Of a stretch of DNA of 64,000 nucleotides, positions 13,107 through 21,168 are shown in pieces. The stretch covers positions 2,858,001 to 2,922,000 of the forward strand of contig NZ_CP051293.1 of the NCBI RefSeq assembly GCF_013170805.1, given 5' to 3'. The notes beneath the pieces are model-generated. The model was not told the origin of the DNA. It worked only from the letters and a program-made list of their open reading frames with translations, and made no database searches. Source of the stretch: Mesorhizobium sp. NZP2077 (GTDB lineage Bacteria > Pseudomonadota > Alphaproteobacteria > Rhizobiales > Rhizobiaceae). Position 1 is the stretch's first letter. Each line of letters opens with the position of its first letter. The translations under genes were made by a program, and so were the position numbers.

Positions 13107-13508
13107 ATGATTTTCCGCACAACAAGTGTGACAACGGGGCTTGCGCTTCTGGTGTTTGCGGCCTGTCCGGCTGCTGCGGACACCCACCAGAAGACAGCGC
13201 TTTCCGGCCACGAGATCTATGTTTTCGGCGGTGCTAGCCTGAACTTGGACTGTTCCAGCGCAGGCAGGGATGACGTGAGAGTGGTCTCCGGTCCAACCCA
13301 CGGAAATGTAAGACTCGTTCGGGGCAAGGTGTATGCGACTTATCCCAAATCGAACGAGCGTTCAAAATGCAATTCCCGCATGGTGAATGGCATCAGGGCA
13401 CTTTACCGGTCGAAAGACGGTTTCAAGGGTTGGGACCAGGTAACATTTTCGGTTCACACCTATGAGGGCAATGCCTTCAAATATGTCACCAACATCAAGG
13501 TCGAGTAG
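13107..13508 (+). CDS. Secreted small protein, paralogue 1 of 3
   Basis: A 133-residue protein with a signal peptide (MIFRTTSVTTGLALLVFAAC, cleavage near AAA-D). The mature part has two conserved cysteines (NLDCSSAGRDDVR and ERSKCNSRMV) and the pattern GPTHGNVRLV ... LYRSKDGFKGWDQVTFSVHT. The HG-V ... GF-G-D-x-F arrangement resembles single cadherin-like/Big_9-type beta-sandwich domains, with the cysteine pair as a likely added disulfide; that fold call is inference. A strong GAGG ribosome site precedes the ATG. Copies 2 and 3 follow in tandem. Confidence 0.8.
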   Translation: MIFRTTSVTTGLALLVFAACPAAADTHQKTALSGHEIYVFGGASLNLDCSSAGRDDVRVVSGPTHGNVRLVRGKVYATYPKSNERSKCNSRMVNGIRALYRSKDGFKGWDQVTFSVHTYEGNAFKYVTNIKVE

Positions 13509-13602
13509 CGGATCTCAGCCGGAATACTGAGGGCGGAGCCGCAATCGCCCGCCCGCATCTCGGCCGAAGGGAGACGTCATGCAGCCAGGGGATCGCTGAG
13601 AA

Positions 13603-14010
13603 ATGGTGTATAGAATCGCAGGTTTCGTAGCGGCATTGACGGCTTTGGGATTGGCGGCCTGGCCCGCCGCCGCGGGGTCGACAAGCTATCGAAAGACAGC
13701 GCTATCCGGACAGGAGATTTATATCTTCAGGGATGTGAGCCTGAATGTGGACTGTTCGAGCGCGGGCGCGGACGATGTCAGGATCATCGCGGGCCCAAGC
13801 CATGGCAAGGTCAGGCTTGTGCACGCAAAGCTCTATACCGGTTTCGCCAAAGCGAATGAGCGCTCGAAATGCAACACGCACAAGGTCGATGGCATCAAGG
13901 GGCTTTACCGGTCAAATCCCGGATTCAAGGGACATGACGAGGTGACTTTTTCGACCCATACCTATACGGGAAATGCCTATAAGGCGGTCGTGAGTATTGA
14001 CGTCGAATAG
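13603..14010 (+). CDS. Secreted small protein, paralogue 2 of 3
   Basis: A 135-residue paralogue of the preceding gene, with signal peptide (to AWPAAAG) and the same landmarks: NVDCSSAGADDVRII, GPSHGKVRLVHAKLY, ERSKCNTHKVDG and NPGFKGHDEVTFSTHTYTG. It lies 94 bp downstream of copy 1 without an obvious promoter, so the two are probably co-transcribed. It is more similar to copy 1 than to copy 3. Function unknown; an extracytoplasmic binding or matrix role is possible. Confidence 0.8.
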   Translation: MVYRIAGFVAALTALGLAAWPAAAGSTSYRKTALSGQEIYIFRDVSLNVDCSSAGADDVRIIAGPSHGKVRLVHAKLYTGFAKANERSKCNTHKVDGIKGLYRSNPGFKGHDEVTFSTHTYTGNAYKAVVSIDVE

Positions 14011-14140
14011 AGCTTTGCGGGCGAAGCCTCGTTGCTCATCTCTCCAGCAAACCGGAGATGAGTTATTGTATAGGTCAAAATTCATCGGAACATTATCAAA
14101 AGTCTATTCTGATAGAATCAGCAAGTATGGGAAAGCCAAG

Positions 14141-14554
14141 ATGATCTGCCGAGCGACTGGTATCATAGCGATGGTTGCCCTCCTAGGGCTCGCTGTCTGT
14201 CCCGCGGCCGCGATGGCGCGTTGGTCAAGCCAAGAGAAGACAGCACCCTCTGGAAAAGAGGTCTCTGTCATCAAAGGCTCGAGTCTGAACCCAGACTGTT
14301 CAAATGAGGGTAGACAAGATGGAAGGGCAATCGCTGGGCCGAGTCACGGAAAGATCAGGATCGTGTTTGGAAAGATTTATCCTGTCTACCCCAAGGGGAG
14401 TGACCGCTATAAATGTGACGCTCGAAAAGTTGACGGAGTAAGTGGTCTTTACAAGTCAAATCCTGGATTTAAAGGGCGGGATCAGATAACGTTTTCGATC
14501 CATACAATTACGGGAGAGTCGTATACGGTTGTCATAAATATTACCGTTAAATGA
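14141..14554 (+). CDS. Secreted small protein, paralogue 3 of 3 (diverged)
   Basis: A 137-residue paralogue with signal peptide (MICRATGIIAMVALLGLAVC to AAAMA) and the same core: NPDCSNEGRQDG, GPSHGKIRIVFGKIY, YKCDARKVDGVSGLYKSNPG. Both core cysteines are conserved. Its base composition is visibly AT-richer than copies 1 and 2. It has its own upstream region sharing two blocks with the region before copy 1 at identical spacing. The ATG at 14141 was chosen because it starts the signal peptide; the frame is open further upstream. Confidence 0.75.
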   Translation: MICRATGIIAMVALLGLAVCPAAAMARWSSQEKTAPSGKEVSVIKGSSLNPDCSNEGRQDGRAIAGPSHGKIRIVFGKIYPVYPKGSDRYKCDARKVDGVSGLYKSNPGFKGRDQITFSIHTITGESYTVVINITVK

Positions 14555-15490: not shown

Positions 15491-16267
15491 ATGCATCGGG
15501 GTTTATATGGGCGGCAAGATTGCGTGCGAAGTATTGCAGATGAAATTGATTCCATTCACGGGGTAGACACACCGGTCACGGATTTGAGCCCGTCCGACCG
15601 CGACCGGATGTTTGCGTTGTACGAGACCTACTACGAGGCCGTCGACCGCAACGGTTTCGAGCGCGATCTCGCCGAGAAGGATGCCGTCGTGATCATCCGG
15701 CGCGACCGGGAGATCATTGGGTTCTCGACCTACCTCGTCAGGCCGCAGACGATCGGCGAGGACACTGTCCACTATCTCTTTTCCGGCGACACCGTTCTCC
15801 ATTCGGCGCGCTGGGGCGACCCTATGCTGCTGCGCGGTTTCTTCCGCGCGGCGGGCGCCGCCAAGGCAAGGGTGGGGGGCCGCCTGTTCTGGTTCCCCAT
15901 CATAGGCGGGCACAGGACATTCCGCATCCTGCCCAACTTCTTCCGCGATTTCGTTCCCGCCATCGATGGCCAGGATTCAGCCCGCCTGCAGCTGATCCGC
16001 GACACAATTGCGGCCGCCCGCTATGGGGACTATTTCGATCCGGCCACGGGGTTGGTCGATTTCGGCCCGTCCCAGGGCCATTTGCGGCAACAATGGGCCG
16101 ATGTCGAGCAAACGGCGGTCCGCAACCGCTTCGCCGCTTTCTTCCTGAGAGCCAATCCCTTTTACTTCCGAGGCGTCGAGCTTGCCTGCCTGGCTGAGTT
16201 CGACGCAAGCAATCTGAAGCGTTATGGCGCAGCGAGTTTTGCCGAAGGGCTGAACCATGGTTGCTGA
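15491..16267 (+). CDS. GNAT-like acyltransferase candidate of the GH3 locus
   Basis: A 258-residue soluble protein. Residues 25-75 (LSPSDRDRMFALYETYYEAV then DAVVIIRRDREIIGFSTYLV) have the strand-helix pattern of the GNAT N-terminal half, but no clear acetyl-CoA P-loop (Q/RxxGxG/A) is visible, so a GNAT-like fold is a guess. FWFPIIGGHRTFRILPNFF is distinctive. The gene overlaps the GH3 gene by 11 bp, so the two products are almost certainly made together. It could tailor or present an acyl substrate for the GH3 enzyme. Confidence 0.75.
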   Translation: MHRGLYGRQDCVRSIADEIDSIHGVDTPVTDLSPSDRDRMFALYETYYEAVDRNGFERDLAEKDAVVIIRRDREIIGFSTYLVRPQTIGEDTVHYLFSGDTVLHSARWGDPMLLRGFFRAAGAAKARVGGRLFWFPIIGGHRTFRILPNFFRDFVPAIDGQDSARLQLIRDTIAAARYGDYFDPATGLVDFGPSQGHLRQQWADVEQTAVRNRFAAFFLRANPFYFRGVELACLAEFDASNLKRYGAASFAEGLNHGC

Positions 16268-17840
16268 AGCCTGGGCGCAGATTGCCGGTGCGACCGCCGC
16301 TGCCGAGGCTGTTTTCCAGTCCCGGCTCGACAGTGTCGAGGCCACGCAGCGCGCCGTCTTGCGGCGGCTTGTCAACGCCAATGCCGCGACAGCGTTCGGA
16401 GCTGACCAAGGCTTCGCCGGCGTCACTTCGGCGGAAACCTTTCGCGATCTGGTGCCGATCTGCGACTACGAGATGGTGTCGCCCTATATCGAACGAGTGG
16501 TCAGCGGGGGTGACAACGTGCTGACCGCCGAACCGGTCCGGTTCCTGGAACAGACCGGCGGCAGTTCCGGCGGCTCGAAATTTATTCCTTATACGGATAC
16601 GGGCCTGCAGGCCTTCACCGATTGCCTTTATCCCTGGCTGGCGAACCTGATCCGCCGCCGCCCGGGCATCAGGCGTGGACGCAGCTATTTTGCACTGAGC
16701 CCAGTGGGCCGCGGCGCGAACGAGCGCGTCGGCGCACACAGGTTGGGCAGTCCAGTGCCTTTCGCCTATTTCGGCGCCTTGCGCGACAGCCTGATCGAAC
16801 TTTCCGCCGTGCCGATGCACCTGCGGTTGCTCACCGATTTCGCCAACTGGCAGAGGCAGACCTGCCTGCATCTTTTGGCCGCTGAGGATCTTGCCCTGAT
16901 CTGGGTCTGGAGCCCGACCTATCTGACGGAAATCCTGCGCGCGATGCAACGCGATGGCGGAAGCCTGTTGGCGGAACTGGCTGAGAAGCTGCGCGCTACG
17001 CAGACGGCGGATGCGGTGCGCAGTCGCATTGCCGTGCTGGAACGCGCGCTTGGGAATTCGCAACTGTCGGAGATCTGGCCTCGCCTCGACACGATCAGCT
17101 GCTGGACCGACGCCTCGAGCAGCGGCTTTGCCGCCGCATTGCAGGCGCAATTCCCGCACGTGTTCATCCAGTCCAAGGGGCTGATGTCCACCGAAGCCGC
17201 CGTTTCATTCCCCTACGGCGATGGCCCCGGCTGTATACTGGCATCGCAAAGCGGGTTCTTCGAGTTTGTCGATGAAGGCGGTGCCTGCCTTTTCGCCTCG
17301 CAGTTGGAAGCCGGTCGGATCTACAGGCTGATCGTTACCACGGGCTCCGGTCTCTACCGCTACGACACGCAGGACATGATCGAGGTCACTGGATATAGCG
17401 GGGATACGCCGCGCCTGCGCTTCCATGGCCGTGCCGGCATGGCGTCCGATCTCTGTGGCGAGAAGCTCACGGAAGCTTTCGTCGCGCGCTGTCTGGCCGA
17501 GATCGGGCTCGATCATCGAACCTATGCGCTGCTGGTGGCGGTCGCGGCCCCACACCCGCACTACCGGCTTTTCGTCGAGGCTGGTCAAGGGCGCACCGTC
17601 GACGCGTTTGATGAAAGTCTCGACCACGCGCTCAAGGCCAATCCGCAATATGAATATGCCCGTCGGATCGGCCAGCTCGAGCCGTTGCGGGCCAAAGGCG
17701 TCGACGACCTCTATGGCAGGCTGAAGCGCCACCGCACGGCGGGCGGCACCAGTATTGCCGGGATGAAGGCGCCGATACTGCTCGGGCGATCGGACGCGGC
17801 GCTTCTAGCAGCGCTCGAAGCGGATCAGGGGGAGATCTAG
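16257..17840 (+). CDS. GH3-family acyl-acid adenylating/amido synthetase
   Basis: A 527-residue member of the GH3 branch of the ANL superfamily. The three ATP/AMP motifs can be placed: FLEQTGGSSGGSKFIPYTDT (motif I, around residue 97), LMSTEAAVSFPYG (motif II) and YRYDTQDMIEVTGYSG (motif III), then FHGRAGMASDLCGEKLTEAF. Plant GH3 enzymes adenylate acyl acids such as jasmonate or auxin and join them to amino acids; bacterial members are largely uncharacterised. It overlaps the upstream gene by 11 bp and lies beside a P450 and an ATP-grasp-like gene, suggesting a small specialised-metabolite pathway. Substrates unknown. Confidence 0.88.
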   Translation: MVAEAWAQIAGATAAAEAVFQSRLDSVEATQRAVLRRLVNANAATAFGADQGFAGVTSAETFRDLVPICDYEMVSPYIERVVSGGDNVLTAEPVRFLEQTGGSSGGSKFIPYTDTGLQAFTDCLYPWLANLIRRRPGIRRGRSYFALSPVGRGANERVGAHRLGSPVPFAYFGALRDSLIELSAVPMHLRLLTDFANWQRQTCLHLLAAEDLALIWVWSPTYLTEILRAMQRDGGSLLAELAEKLRATQTADAVRSRIAVLERALGNSQLSEIWPRLDTISCWTDASSSGFAAALQAQFPHVFIQSKGLMSTEAAVSFPYGDGPGCILASQSGFFEFVDEGGACLFASQLEAGRIYRLIVTTGSGLYRYDTQDMIEVTGYSGDTPRLRFHGRAGMASDLCGEKLTEAFVARCLAEIGLDHRTYALLVAVAAPHPHYRLFVEAGQGRTVDAFDESLDHALKANPQYEYARRIGQLEPLRAKGVDDLYGRLKRHRTAGGTSIAGMKAPILLGRSDAALLAALEADQGEI

Positions 17841-17918
17841 GATGATGCCGCATCTCCTTGGCATGGAATCGAAAATCCGGGTTGCCGGGCAAGGTCGCGA
17901 AGACCGCAGGCAGACGGG

Positions 17919-19124
17919 TCAGGCCGTCAGGCGCAAGGTCAACGCGTCCAGGCCGCGGATGGAGGAATTGTCCATCCAGCGGGCGGCAACCGGTTCGATG
18001 GTGTTCCAACGGGCGAGTGCGGCTTCCAGCACCGCGGTACCTTCCATTTCCGCGAGCGCCCTGCCGATGCATACGTGCGCGCCCCGGCCGAAGGCCAAAT
18101 TCTGCTTGCCGGCCCGGCCAAGGTCGAAACGCGACGCATCAGCAAACTGGGCGGGATCGCGGTTGGCGGCGCCGACGAGGAGCACCAACAGATCGTCCTT
18201 CTCGATTTCCTGGCCGTCAAGCATGACGGGTTCGAGTGGCCAGCGGCAGATCTTCTGTACAGGGCTTTCCAGCCGCAGCGTTTCGGCAACGGCATTGGCG
18301 GCAAGCCGGCGGTCTCTACGCAGGGCGGACCACTGGGAAGGCTGGTGAGCAAGATGGAACAGCATGTTGCCGATAAGGTGCACCGTGGTCTCGTGGCCGG
18401 CAAAGGCAAGGAAGGCAATGTTGCGACCGGCGGCCGTCAGCCCCAGCGCCTCGACAAGACTGGCAAGCCCAGTCAGCAGCGGCGGTACCTGCCCGGCGGC
18501 AAGCAGACGACGCAGATGCTCCACGAAATAGTCGGACATTTCGTCGGCCGGGTTGCCATGGCCGCCAAACGCTTCGTCGAAGCCGGCATCGAGAATGGTG
18601 CGGATCGAGCCCGACCATGCCCGGATCATCGGCATGTCCTCGTCCGGCACGCCAAGCAGGCGGCAGATGACCCATTCGGGTACGGCGCGCGTGAAGGCGG
18701 CCACGACATCAATCGTGCCGGACTGGCCGGCATCGCCGACAAGGTCCTCGACCGCTTCGTCCACGACGGGACGCAATGCTGCCATGCCTTTGCCGACAAA
18801 GGGTTGCTGCAGCGCCTGGCGCAGGGCGGTGTGGGCGCTGCCCTCCTGATAGATCAGCCAGTCGCGGATCGCGGAAGACGGCTCGGCGGTCCCGCCGCCC
18901 GGCGGTACATGCGACAGCTTGCGATTGGCGAGGCTGCTCGAAACGAGATCGTAGCCGGTGAGGTAGACATCGCCCCAAGGCGCTCGCCAGACCGGAGCGC
19001 GCCGTCGCATTTCATCATGGATCGCGTAGGTGTCCGCGGCACCTTCGAAGGCGCCGGCACGAATGCCTTGCCATGGATGCCGCACGGCTTCGAATGCAGG
19101 ACTGGAAGAAGGCTCGTTATGCAT
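17919..19124 (-). CDS. Cytochrome P450
   Basis: A 401-residue soluble bacterial P450. The I-helix oxygen-activation motif is AFAGHETTVHLIG, the K-helix ExxR is ETLRLESPV, and the heme-cysteine signature is LAFGRGAHVCIGRALAEME. It would hydroxylate or otherwise oxidise a small molecule using ferredoxin electrons; no ferredoxin or reductase gene is adjacent. It faces the GH3 gene convergently (78 bp apart) and is divergent from the ATP-grasp-like gene (74 bp apart), so it shares a promoter region with the latter. Product and substrate unknown. Confidence 0.94.
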   Translation of the reverse strand: MHNEPSSSPAFEAVRHPWQGIRAGAFEGAADTYAIHDEMRRRAPVWRAPWGDVYLTGYDLVSSSLANRKLSHVPPGGGTAEPSSAIRDWLIYQEGSAHTALRQALQQPFVGKGMAALRPVVDEAVEDLVGDAGQSGTIDVVAAFTRAVPEWVICRLLGVPDEDMPMIRAWSGSIRTILDAGFDEAFGGHGNPADEMSDYFVEHLRRLLAAGQVPPLLTGLASLVEALGLTAAGRNIAFLAFAGHETTVHLIGNMLFHLAHQPSQWSALRRDRRLAANAVAETLRLESPVQKICRWPLEPVMLDGQEIEKDDLLVLLVGAANRDPAQFADASRFDLGRAGKQNLAFGRGAHVCIGRALAEMEGTAVLEAALARWNTIEPVAARWMDNSSIRGLDALTLRLTA

Positions 19125-19198
19125 CGACTTTCGAGAAACCCCACCTTTCCAGCCCGCACAGGTTTGCGCCAGGCACGCCTGGATATCGACGCCCGGCC

Positions 19199-20260
19199 AT
19201 GACCAGCGATCAGGGACCGATCTATTATTTCTGCACGCGCCAACACGCTTACACGATGGGCGTGCTGCTTGGCTATTACCGCCACGGGCTTGGTGATCTG
19301 GTCCGGATCATTCCCTATGAGTTGGCGGGAAGGCTCGGCCCAGTCACTCCCGGCACCTTCATCTTCACCGATTTCGAAAGGCTGTCGCCGGCGCGGTTGG
19401 AGGCCGCGATTGCATTGCATGGCCGCATCGCCTTGCTCAATCCAGGTCTGTTGCGCCTCAACGACCCGGCAATCGTGCCGCGGCGCTTCGACTTGCTGAA
19501 GCGGCTCAAGGGCGCCGGCCTGAACGATTTCGATGTGTATCGCCTGGGGGAGCGCAAGTCTGTTCGCCGGTTTCCGGTTTTCGTGCGCTGGGAGAGCCAG
19601 CATGAGCCGCCGCTGACCGGGCTGATCGACGGCGCCGATGCGCTGGAGGCGGCGATTGCCGGCCTGCCGGGCCATGTTCGCCAGGACCCCGACCTGATGA
19701 TTGTGGAATATGGCGCGGCCCCTTCGGCCGACGGCCGGTTTCGCAAGTACTCGGCCTACAAGGTCGGGCCGACGATCTATCCGCAGCACTGCTTCATCAA
19801 TGAGAACTGGTACATCAAGTTTCCCGGCACCCGCTTCACTGAAGCCGACAGAGCCGAAAGCCGCGCCTATGTAGCCGACAATCCGCATGCCACGCAGATC
19901 GAGCGTGTCTTTGCGCTGGCAGGCATCGATTACGGCCGCATCGACTACGGCATCGTCGATGGCCGGGTGCAGACCTTCGAGATCAACAACAATCCAACGG
20001 TTCTGGCGCGGCCGCCTGACTGGGATCCTGGTGTGGATTACAGCCGCTACGCTGAGATGCATGAGCGCGCCCTGCGCGGCATCATGCGGCGGCCGTCCGG
20101 CCCCAACCTGTTGCTCGGCGACTGCTCGATGAGCGTCGATGCCATGCACGTCGATGCCATGCACGCGGTGCGGCAGCGCATTGCAGGATTTTCCCGGCGG
20201 CGGCGGCTGTCGCTGCGGCCGCTGAAGAAGCGGCTGGCGCGGCTGTTCGGCCGGGGGTGA
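19199..20260 (+). CDS. ATP-grasp-like ligase candidate
   Basis: A 353-residue protein. The C-terminal part has the ATP-grasp metal-binding pattern RIDYGIVDGRVQTFEINNNP (E-x-N-x-N), preceded by IVEYGAAP and a substrate-facing loop FRKYSAYKVG. The N-terminal half carries a short nucleotide-like domain (IFTDFERLSPARLEAA). ATP-grasp enzymes join carboxylates to amines via acyl phosphates, so an amide or peptide bond is plausible. Near the C-terminus the pentapeptide VDAMH is duplicated by a 15-bp tandem repeat. The ATG at 19199 overlaps the end of a frame continuing from upstream, but family-like sequence starts here. Confidence 0.72.
   Translation: MTSDQGPIYYFCTRQHAYTMGVLLGYYRHGLGDLVRIIPYELAGRLGPVTPGTFIFTDFERLSPARLEAAIALHGRIALLNPGLLRLNDPAIVPRRFDLLKRLKGAGLNDFDVYRLGERKSVRRFPVFVRWESQHEPPLTGLIDGADALEAAIAGLPGHVRQDPDLMIVEYGAAPSADGRFRKYSAYKVGPTIYPQHCFINENWYIKFPGTRFTEADRAESRAYVADNPHATQIERVFALAGIDYGRIDYGIVDGRVQTFEINNNPTVLARPPDWDPGVDYSRYAEMHERALRGIMRRPSGPNLLLGDCSMSVDAMHVDAMHAVRQRIAGFSRRRRLSLRPLKKRLARLFGRG
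20135..20164. repeat. In-frame 15-bp tandem duplication
   Basis: The unit GTCGATGCCATGCAC occurs twice back to back (20135-20149 and 20150-20164), giving VDAMHVDAMH near the C-terminus of the ATP-grasp-like protein. The frame is preserved. Identity is exact, so the duplication looks recent. Confidence 0.9.
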
Positions 20261-20301: not shown

Positions 20302-21168
20302 TTATCTGGTGGCGGCTGCAACCAGCATTTCGCATGGCCCTTCGAACTGTCCGTCCTGTTCGAACTGGCCAAGCGCGGTTTCGATTTCGGCCCAGGCGTC
20401 GTCCTGCTCGCTGGGCGACAGGCCGGCCAGCATCTGGTGCAGCGCGCCGAACGATTCCTGCTCGAACTGCAGGCATTCGAGCGCCGATCGCAGCCGCACC
20501 GGCGCGTTGACCTTCTCGATGCGCACGTCGTGGAACCCCGCATCGGTCAGGCGCTTGGCCAGCACCGCCGGGTCGCCCAGGCTGAACGGCCCGGGCTGGC
20601 CGGGCAGGGGCGCGGGCAGCGCGGCGCGGCGGCGGATGATGCCGACCGGAATGGAGAAGAACGGGTTCCTGTCGGCGGTGGAATAGACGATGGCGCCAAC
20701 CTTGCCACCTGGCTTCAGATGATCGCGCATGCCGCCCAGCGCCCGGTTCTGGTCGGGAAAATAGATCAGCCCGACGCGCGAGATCGCCGCGTCGAATGGT
20801 TCGGCCGAAATGGCATCCAGCATTTCGCCATCGGCGACGGCGGTGTCGACATTGGCGTAGCCGGCCAGCCTCGCATTCTCGGCGGCAAAGTTCAGAATGC
20901 CGGCCGAGATGTCGGTGGCCAGCACATAGCCCGTCGGCCCGACACGCCGCGCCGCCGTCAGCGTCTGTTCGCCGGCACCGGCAGCGACGTCGAGGACCCG
21001 GCTGCCCTTGCCGACATCGGTCATGTCAAGCATCAGTTCGGTGGCGAGTCCGAGCCAGCGGGTCAACAGCGAACCCCAGCGGTTCCAGGCCTCGGCGGCG
21101 CTGTCCCATTGCCTGCGGGTGGTTTCCTTGAACTTTGCCGGATCGAAAATCGGTTGCTGCATGGTCAT
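20302..21168 (-). CDS. Class I SAM-dependent methyltransferase
   Basis: A 288-residue methyltransferase. SAM-binding motif I is VLDVAAGAGEQTLTAARRVG, followed by YVLATDISAGILNFAAENA and the acidic post-loop AVADGEMLD; the UbiE/arsenite-methyltransferase style LKPGGKVGAIVYS is present. Substrate unknown. The ATG at 21168 has a GGAGG ribosome site. It is divergent from a LysR gene that probably regulates it. It borders the GH3/P450/ATP-grasp locus and could belong to it, but the convergent orientation and its own regulator leave this open. Confidence 0.88.
   Translation of the reverse strand: MTMQQPIFDPAKFKETTRRQWDSAAEAWNRWGSLLTRWLGLATELMLDMTDVGKGSRVLDVAAGAGEQTLTAARRVGPTGYVLATDISAGILNFAAENARLAGYANVDTAVADGEMLDAISAEPFDAAISRVGLIYFPDQNRALGGMRDHLKPGGKVGAIVYSTADRNPFFSIPVGIIRRRAALPAPLPGQPGPFSLGDPAVLAKRLTDAGFHDVRIEKVNAPVRLRSALECLQFEQESFGALHQMLAGLSPSEQDDAWAEIETALGQFEQDGQFEGPCEMLVAAATR

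What the first reader, a model, noticed from the sequence alone, without database searches (positions are those of the whole stretch)
15491..20260. Accessory GH3 / P450 / ATP-grasp / GNAT-like biosynthetic locus
Four genes in 4.8 kb encode a GNAT-like protein, a GH3-family acyl-adenylating enzyme (overlapping it by 11 bp), a P450 and an ATP-grasp-like ligase sharing a 74-bp promoter region with the P450. GH3 enzymes in plants conjugate acyl hormones such as auxin and jasmonate to amino acids. Finding one in a probable plant symbiont next to an oxidase and a second amide-forming enzyme suggests a small pathway that makes or alters an amide-linked acyl compound, possibly a hormone conjugate. I know of no described pathway with this set. 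The methyltransferase at 20302 may belong to it. Function is inference; the domain calls are from visible motifs.
Basis: partly seen in the sequence, partly recalled or inferred. Interest (0 to 1): 0.82.

Follow-up and report, generated by a model that had tools for sequence, protein, structure and literature searches.

The report
GNAT–P450–ATP-grasp cassette with optional GH3
A soil and root bacterium carries a small, conserved set of genes that looks able to build an unknown oxidised amide compound; the plant-hormone-like GH3 enzyme in it is an optional extra rather than the heart of the pathway.

Summary
GH3 and P450 pass Pfam cut-offs; the 258- and 353-residue proteins match no curated family, but their models are GNAT and RimK/LysX/Ddl-type ATP-grasp folds. 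The genome is Mesorhizobium. GNAT, P450 and ATP-grasp occur together in one arrangement in 16 of 146 genus genomes; a 17th keeps only GNAT and a truncated GH3. GH3 is in 9 of the 16, and the tree needs at least three changes of its presence: it is optional. A second Mesorhizobium locus joins a diverged ATP-grasp, a P450 and an unrelated-looking GNAT (13 of 13 fetched). Elsewhere this ATP-grasp family sits beside HExxH hydroxylase-type genes (5 of 14 fetched loci). Separately, GNAT and GH3 are neighbours in 26 of 34 loci outside Mesorhizobium, about ten phyla, nearly all MAGs. The hormone reading gets no support (no nifH enrichment; pair widespread); the methyltransferase is not part. Best reading: an undescribed NRPS-free amide pathway (ligase, oxygenase, acyltransferase) of unknown product, with GH3 adding an optional second amide. 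No description turned up in the searches run.

The parts
15491..16267 (+). GNAT-fold acyltransferase-like protein of the type-1 cassette (no curated family; likely start GTG 15524); canonical GNAT pyrophosphate-loop motif not evident at the expected place
16257..17840 (+). GH3-family acyl-adenylate-forming amide synthetase; optional member of the cassette
   Evidence: Pfam GH3, GH3_M, GH3_C over cut-off; motifs TGGSSGGSK, STEA, GLYRYDTQD; in 9 of 16 cassette genomes
17919..19124 (-). Cytochrome P450, convergent with GH3; no redox partner among the four genes
   Evidence: Pfam p450 81.8 bits; AGHETT, ETLR, FGRGAHVCIG motifs; in 16 of 16 cassette genomes
19125..19198 (.). 74-bp divergent intergenic (presumed promoter) region between P450 and ATP-grasp
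   Evidence: Coordinates; divergent P450/ATP-grasp order in all 16 type-1 genomes; no promoter test run
19199..20260 (+). ATP-grasp carboxylate-amine ligase-like protein of an unnamed family

Best explanation
A small NRPS-independent biosynthetic cassette for an oxidised, amide-containing small molecule. Shown: the four genes, their folds and motifs, and conservation of GNAT-P450-ATP-grasp in one arrangement with GH3 optional. Inferred: the ATP-grasp ligase makes the core amide or peptide bond (acyl-phosphate chemistry, like RimK/LysX/Ddl), the P450 oxidises substrate or product, the GNAT N-acylates it (or protects the producer), and where GH3 is present it adds a second amide through an acyl-adenylate, giving a further conjugated variant. 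The product is probably a bacterial metabolite, not a plant-hormone conjugate.
For: Folds and motifs. Co-occurrence in 16 of 146 genus genomes in one arrangement. GH3 in 9 of 16, with at least three changes forced by starred branches. Purifying selection. A second Mesorhizobium locus combines a diverged ATP-grasp (39-44% identity) with a P450 and a GNAT without detectable sequence relation to the first (13 of 13 fetched, 13 of 15 known). Outside the genus the ATP-grasp family lies by HExxH-type genes in 5 of 14 fetched loci (4 pass TIGR04267, aKG-HExxH peptide beta-hydroxylase; the fifth matches a profile made from those four); in one (L206) a P450 and a fatty-acyl-AMP-ligase-like gene are there too. 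So ligase plus oxygenase recurs.
Against: No substrate, product or activity is known. None of the four genes is a transporter, carrier protein, precursor peptide or redox partner. 11 of 11 fetched more distant Mesorhizobium ATP-grasp homologues, and 9 of 14 fetched loci outside the genus, have none of the sought partners. Three of the 14 lie by polysaccharide or glycosyltransferase genes, which suggests another substrate class for part of the family. The GNAT has no clear canonical CoA loop, so it may not be an ordinary acetyltransferase.
Confidence: 0.45

Rival explanations
1. Hormone-conjugating locus: the GH3 enzyme joins auxin, jasmonate or a related plant acyl acid to an amino acid, and P450 and ATP-grasp modify the conjugate.
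For: GH3 domains and motifs intact; all 10 PDB sequences matched are plant GH3 enzymes; nifH is in 100 of 146 genus genomes including this one.
Against: The PDB matches are weak (best 74.7 bits, in one or two short stretches) and the only GH3 chains hit are plant ones, so they say little; a bacterial GH3, OlsH, makes N-acyl ornithine (PMC12493201). GH3 missing in 7 of 16 cassettes; no nifH enrichment; GNAT-GH3 pair in many phyla.
Confidence: 0.08
2. Amino-lipid or N-acyl amino acid pathway: GH3 (OlsH-like) and/or the GNAT attach a fatty acid to an amino acid, the P450 hydroxylates the acyl chain, and the ATP-grasp adds a second amino acid.
Confidence: 0.2
3. Glycan or surface-polymer modification: the ATP-grasp ligase amidates acidic sugars with an amino acid.
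For: ATP-grasp relatives lie near glycosyltransferase or polysaccharide genes in L119, L205 and a Paracoccus plasmid, L188.
Against: None of the four cassette genes is a glycosyltransferase; only 3 of 14 loci outside the genus showed this (neighbours were not annotated in all of them, nor in the flanks of the Mesorhizobium relatives); a P450 partner would be unusual.
Confidence: 0.1
4. The GNAT is a self-protection enzyme that acetylates a toxic dipeptide-like product of P450 and ATP-grasp, as in several small antimetabolite clusters (recalled, not tested).
For: The cassette keeps a GNAT in 16 of 16, and two GNATs without detectable sequence relation fill the place in types 1 and 2.
Against: In other phyla the same GNAT family is paired with GH3, and the close ATP-grasp is not seen there, which suggests a biosynthetic role.
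Confidence: 0.15

Closest known systems
OlsH, GH3-like N-acyl ornithine synthetase of Singulisphaera (PMC12493201; abstract, sections 6 and 8, and part 1 of 2 of section 9 read)
   Same: Bacterial GH3 of similar length (526 aa there, 527 here) with the three nucleotide-binding motifs; amide bond with ATP.
   Different: Ours is far below the OlsH model cut-off (49 of 620 bits), has no OlsI partner and sits with GNAT, P450 and ATP-grasp.
Plant GH3 acyl acid amido synthetases (JAR1, GH3.5, GH3.8, GH3.12)
   Same: Same Pfam domains and motif regions.
   Different: Only short local similarity; substrate pockets not compared here; GH3 is dispensable in the cassette.
RimK / LysX / ArgX / Ddl ATP-grasp ligases
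   Different: About 13% identity over the aligned part, two extra C-terminal helices, no curated family, oxygenase partners.
aKG-HExxH peptide beta-hydroxylase loci (TIGR04267) that hold ATP-grasp relatives
   Same: The same ATP-grasp family beside an oxygenase-type gene (5 of 14 fetched loci, 4 of them tested and over the TIGR04267 cut-off).
   Different: Types 1 and 2 have a P450 instead; no HExxH match in those Mesorhizobium loci.
Cyclodipeptide synthase-P450 operons (PMC2922099, passages only)
   Same: A small peptide-bond former with a P450; the P450 here also hits the CDPS-associated P450 model, below its cut-off.
   Different: The bond former is ATP-grasp-like, not a tRNA-dependent synthase.

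Membership tests
GH3 acyl acid amido synthetase | Pfam GH3 N, M and C domains over cut-off | tested here: met
   118.1, 58.8, 32.9 bits against 23.6
GH3 acyl acid amido synthetase | Three nucleotide-binding motifs | tested here: met
   TGGSSGGSK at 100, STEA at 311, GLYRYDTQD at 365; compared by eye with plant and OlsH motifs given in PMC12493201 section 6
GH3 acyl acid amido synthetase | ATP-dependent amide formation | not testable with these tools
   Needs an enzyme assay
OlsH (lyso-ornithine lipid synthetase) | NF052613 equivalog cut-off | tested here: not met
   49 bits, cut-off 620
Cytochrome P450 | Pfam p450 over cut-off; I-helix, ExxR and heme-Cys motifs | tested here: met
ATP-grasp superfamily | ATP-grasp fold | tested here: met
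ATP-grasp superfamily | Conserved metal/ATP-binding residues | tested here: met
   K183, E170, D249, E261, N263 invariant in 31 rows; their roles are assigned by recalled family knowledge, not by a call
Graspetide (RiPP) ligase | Match to a curated graspetide ATP-grasp model | tested here: not met
   No NCBIfam match at E<=1; that such models are in NCBIfam is recalled
Graspetide (RiPP) ligase | Precursor peptide gene beside the ligase | tested here: inconclusive
   The gaps inside the cassette are 74 and 78 bp; no systematic search for small ORFs
GNAT superfamily | GNAT fold | tested here: met
GNAT superfamily | Canonical Q/RxxGxG/A pyrophosphate loop after beta-4 (motif recalled) | tested here: inconclusive
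   Only RAAGAA at 119, inside a helix of the model; the loop before it has invariant W108 and near-invariant G109 instead
Acyl-homoserine-lactone / N-acyl amino acid synthase | LuxI/FeeM-type fold | tested here: inconclusive

The most novel reading that the evidence does not exclude
The ATP-grasp family of this window is the core of an undescribed class of NRPS-free pathways that pair a carboxylate-amine ligase with an oxygenase (P450 or aKG-HExxH hydroxylase) and an acyltransferase. Separately, GNAT-GH3 is an unrecognised two-enzyme amide-forming unit spread over about ten phyla, recruited into the Mesorhizobium cassette, where GH3 was then gained or lost more than once.
Probability: 0.35. 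Interest if true: 0.72.

Novelty: new variant of a known kind. Interest (0 to 1): 0.52.

Why it matters
If right, it gives a compact, testable route to unknown oxidised amides in rhizobia. Natural strains with and without GH3 are ready-made comparisons. It gives a context to two protein families without a name (the GNAT and the ATP-grasp). The GNAT-GH3 pair offers a handle on the many bacterial GH3 enzymes, of which the papers seen here give an assayed function to one, OlsH.

Tried and rejected
Hormone-conjugate reading: tested by association with nifH and by spread; no support. For type-2 genomes nifH was in 12 of 15 (p=0.39), also no link. Methyltransferase and LysR as cassette members: no methyltransferase match in the fetched stretches of the 15 other cassette genomes (hits with under 30-40% coverage were dropped); LysR hits there were 31-34% identical. 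OlsH identity: rejected by score. Plasmid relatives: 10 records with GH3 hits, all under 60% identity, and 2 with partial ATP-grasp hits; the Citrobacter operon had no match in E. coli genomes in 'near' mode. Relation of type-1 and type-2 GNATs: hhalign probability 0.3%. More distant Mesorhizobium ATP-grasp loci (L207-L217): none of 11 has the sought partners. GH3 clustering on the tree: 14 of 500 shuffles were as low as the observed 3 changes, so GH3 presence follows kinship in part. In one search the rsu pick for L169 was a wrong ORF, so its row (dN/dS 0.94) is set aside. The class and order scans scored only the best 3-7 candidates a genome, so their counts are lower bounds. Literature: nothing describing the cassette or the pair was found; these cover open-licence PMC papers only, and apart from the two papers named I saw listings only. 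PMC2922099 was seen in passages. What I recalled about ATP-grasp gene-neighbourhood surveys comes from no call.
Full report

Distribution in the genus. The window's genome is 7.69 Mb in two contigs, with one GH3 gene. Its genus holds G056, whose contig and coordinates are those of M. ciceri WSM4083. Of 146 genus genomes, 38 have an ATP-grasp match at E<=1e-20; 16 of these, the window's included, are close (56% identity or more). All 16 carry GNAT, P450 and ATP-grasp in one arrangement. GNAT is in 17 of 146. The seventeenth, G580, keeps GNAT and a GH3 matched only to residue 261, with no P450 or ATP-grasp match in the 15 kb read. GH3 is in 10 of 146: 9 of the 16 cassettes, and G580. In a three-protein tree GH3 presence needs at least three changes, which fits repeated loss; without an outgroup the direction is not shown, and the label is partly clustered (14 of 500 shuffles as low). 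The pseudouridine synthase gene rsu lies within the stretch read in 13 of 16, in varying orientation and distance, and not in G056, G560 and G538. dN/dS is 0.06-0.32 in 26 cassette-gene comparisons.

Type-2 locus. Fifteen further genomes have an ATP-grasp at 39-44% identity; I fetched 13 of the 15. All 13 have a P450 (25-36% identity in local tblastn) and a different GNAT of about 225 residues, between P450 and ATP-grasp. Of three of these GNATs scanned, one passes the Pfam Acetyltransf_1 cut-off (24.5 of 20.7 bits) and two fall just under (20.2 and 18). The two GNAT families show no detectable relation. The 13 are related genomes in two subgroups, not 13 independent events. Eleven fetched loci with more distant homologues have none of the partners.

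Outside the genus. In 385 genomes of the class, the own included, 19 have an ATP-grasp match and 49 a GH3 match, mostly distant; in 297 of the order 10 pass E<=1e-40, two of them Mesorhizobium. These are lower bounds. I read 14 ATP-grasp loci outside the genus, not all that were hit (G759 and the weak class hits were left out). Five carry an HExxH gene (L122, L201, L202, L203, L206): four were scanned and pass TIGR04267, the fifth matches a profile of those four. One (L206) has a P450 and an AMP-binding enzyme. Three lie by polysaccharide or glycosyltransferase genes (L119, L188, L205). Several copies of the ATP-grasp lie together in L116, L122 and L204.

GNAT-GH3 pair. A scan of species genomes with the GNAT alignment, by one peptide pattern that knows nothing of GH3, gave 46 loci: 12 Mesorhizobium and 34 others. 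Of the 34, 26 have GH3 within 1.5 kb downstream on the same strand, 2 farther off (Elusimicrobia), 6 none in the DNA held; in three of these six the contig ends within 4 kb. The 26 span about ten phyla by my reading of the record titles; 25 of the 26 are MAGs (the exception is Aeoliella straminimaris), so single cases may be binning errors. No close ATP-grasp was found in the 34. Neighbour clusters: a protein of about 360 residues in 19 of 34 loci, Rieske oxygenase in 17, FA desaturase in 10, SnoaL/DUF4440-like in 9, UnbU/UnbV-like fusion in 9, AurF-like in 4; B12-radical SAM genes in 15 of 34 by my count. I call the 360-residue protein a double GNAT by eye; it has no Pfam match, but its Citrobacter relative is annotated N-acetyltransferase. 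A PAP2-like cluster is under its Pfam cut-off. The operon is also on a Citrobacter plasmid: GNAT (1e-66), GH3, four radical SAM genes, an N-acetyltransferase, PAP2.

Symbiosis. nifH (E<=1e-60) is in 100 of 146 genus genomes, 8 of 16 with the cassette, 3 of 9 with GH3 and 5 of 7 without. No positive link; p=0.15, uncorrected for kinship.

Interpretation. Conserved together: ligase, oxygenase, acyltransferase. Optional: GH3. This points to an amide-forming small-molecule pathway in which GH3 is a tailoring step. The order of reactions, substrates and product are inference. The closest characterised bacterial relative of the GH3 that I saw is OlsH, yet ours is not an OlsH by the curated cut-off. 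I rate it a new variant of a known kind (NRPS-free amide biosynthesis), with the broader family claim as the novel case.

Noticed in passing
L027-L057 (e.g. L030, L041, L047-L049, L052, L057) and L185: Recurrent gene sets with B12-radical SAM genes, a double-GNAT-like protein, GNAT and GH3, or UnbUV-Rieske-GNAT-GH3-double GNAT, in many phyla and on a Citrobacter IncF plasmid; no known product.
   Followed up: partly
L122, L201, L202, L203, L206: Relatives of the window's ATP-grasp lie beside HExxH peptide beta-hydroxylase-type genes; L206 also has a P450 and a fatty-acyl-AMP-ligase-like gene.
   Followed up: partly
L204, L116, L122: Two or three ATP-grasp copies of this family near one another, in tandem in L204 and L116.
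   Followed up: no
L218 (G580): Degraded cassette: GNAT kept, GH3 truncated, P450 and ATP-grasp not found; a relaxase-like ORF (judged by eye) follows downstream.
   Followed up: partly
L172 4331-5332 and 8586-9119: The type-2 locus is flanked by an extracellular solute-binding protein and an ECF sigma factor; similar ORFs recur in 7 of the 13 type-2 loci.
   Followed up: no
window 13107-14551: Three neighbouring paralogous small proteins with signal-like starts by eye (second and third 59 and 51% identical to the first) upstream of the cassette; relatives of the first two lie by rsu in some other genomes.
   Followed up: no
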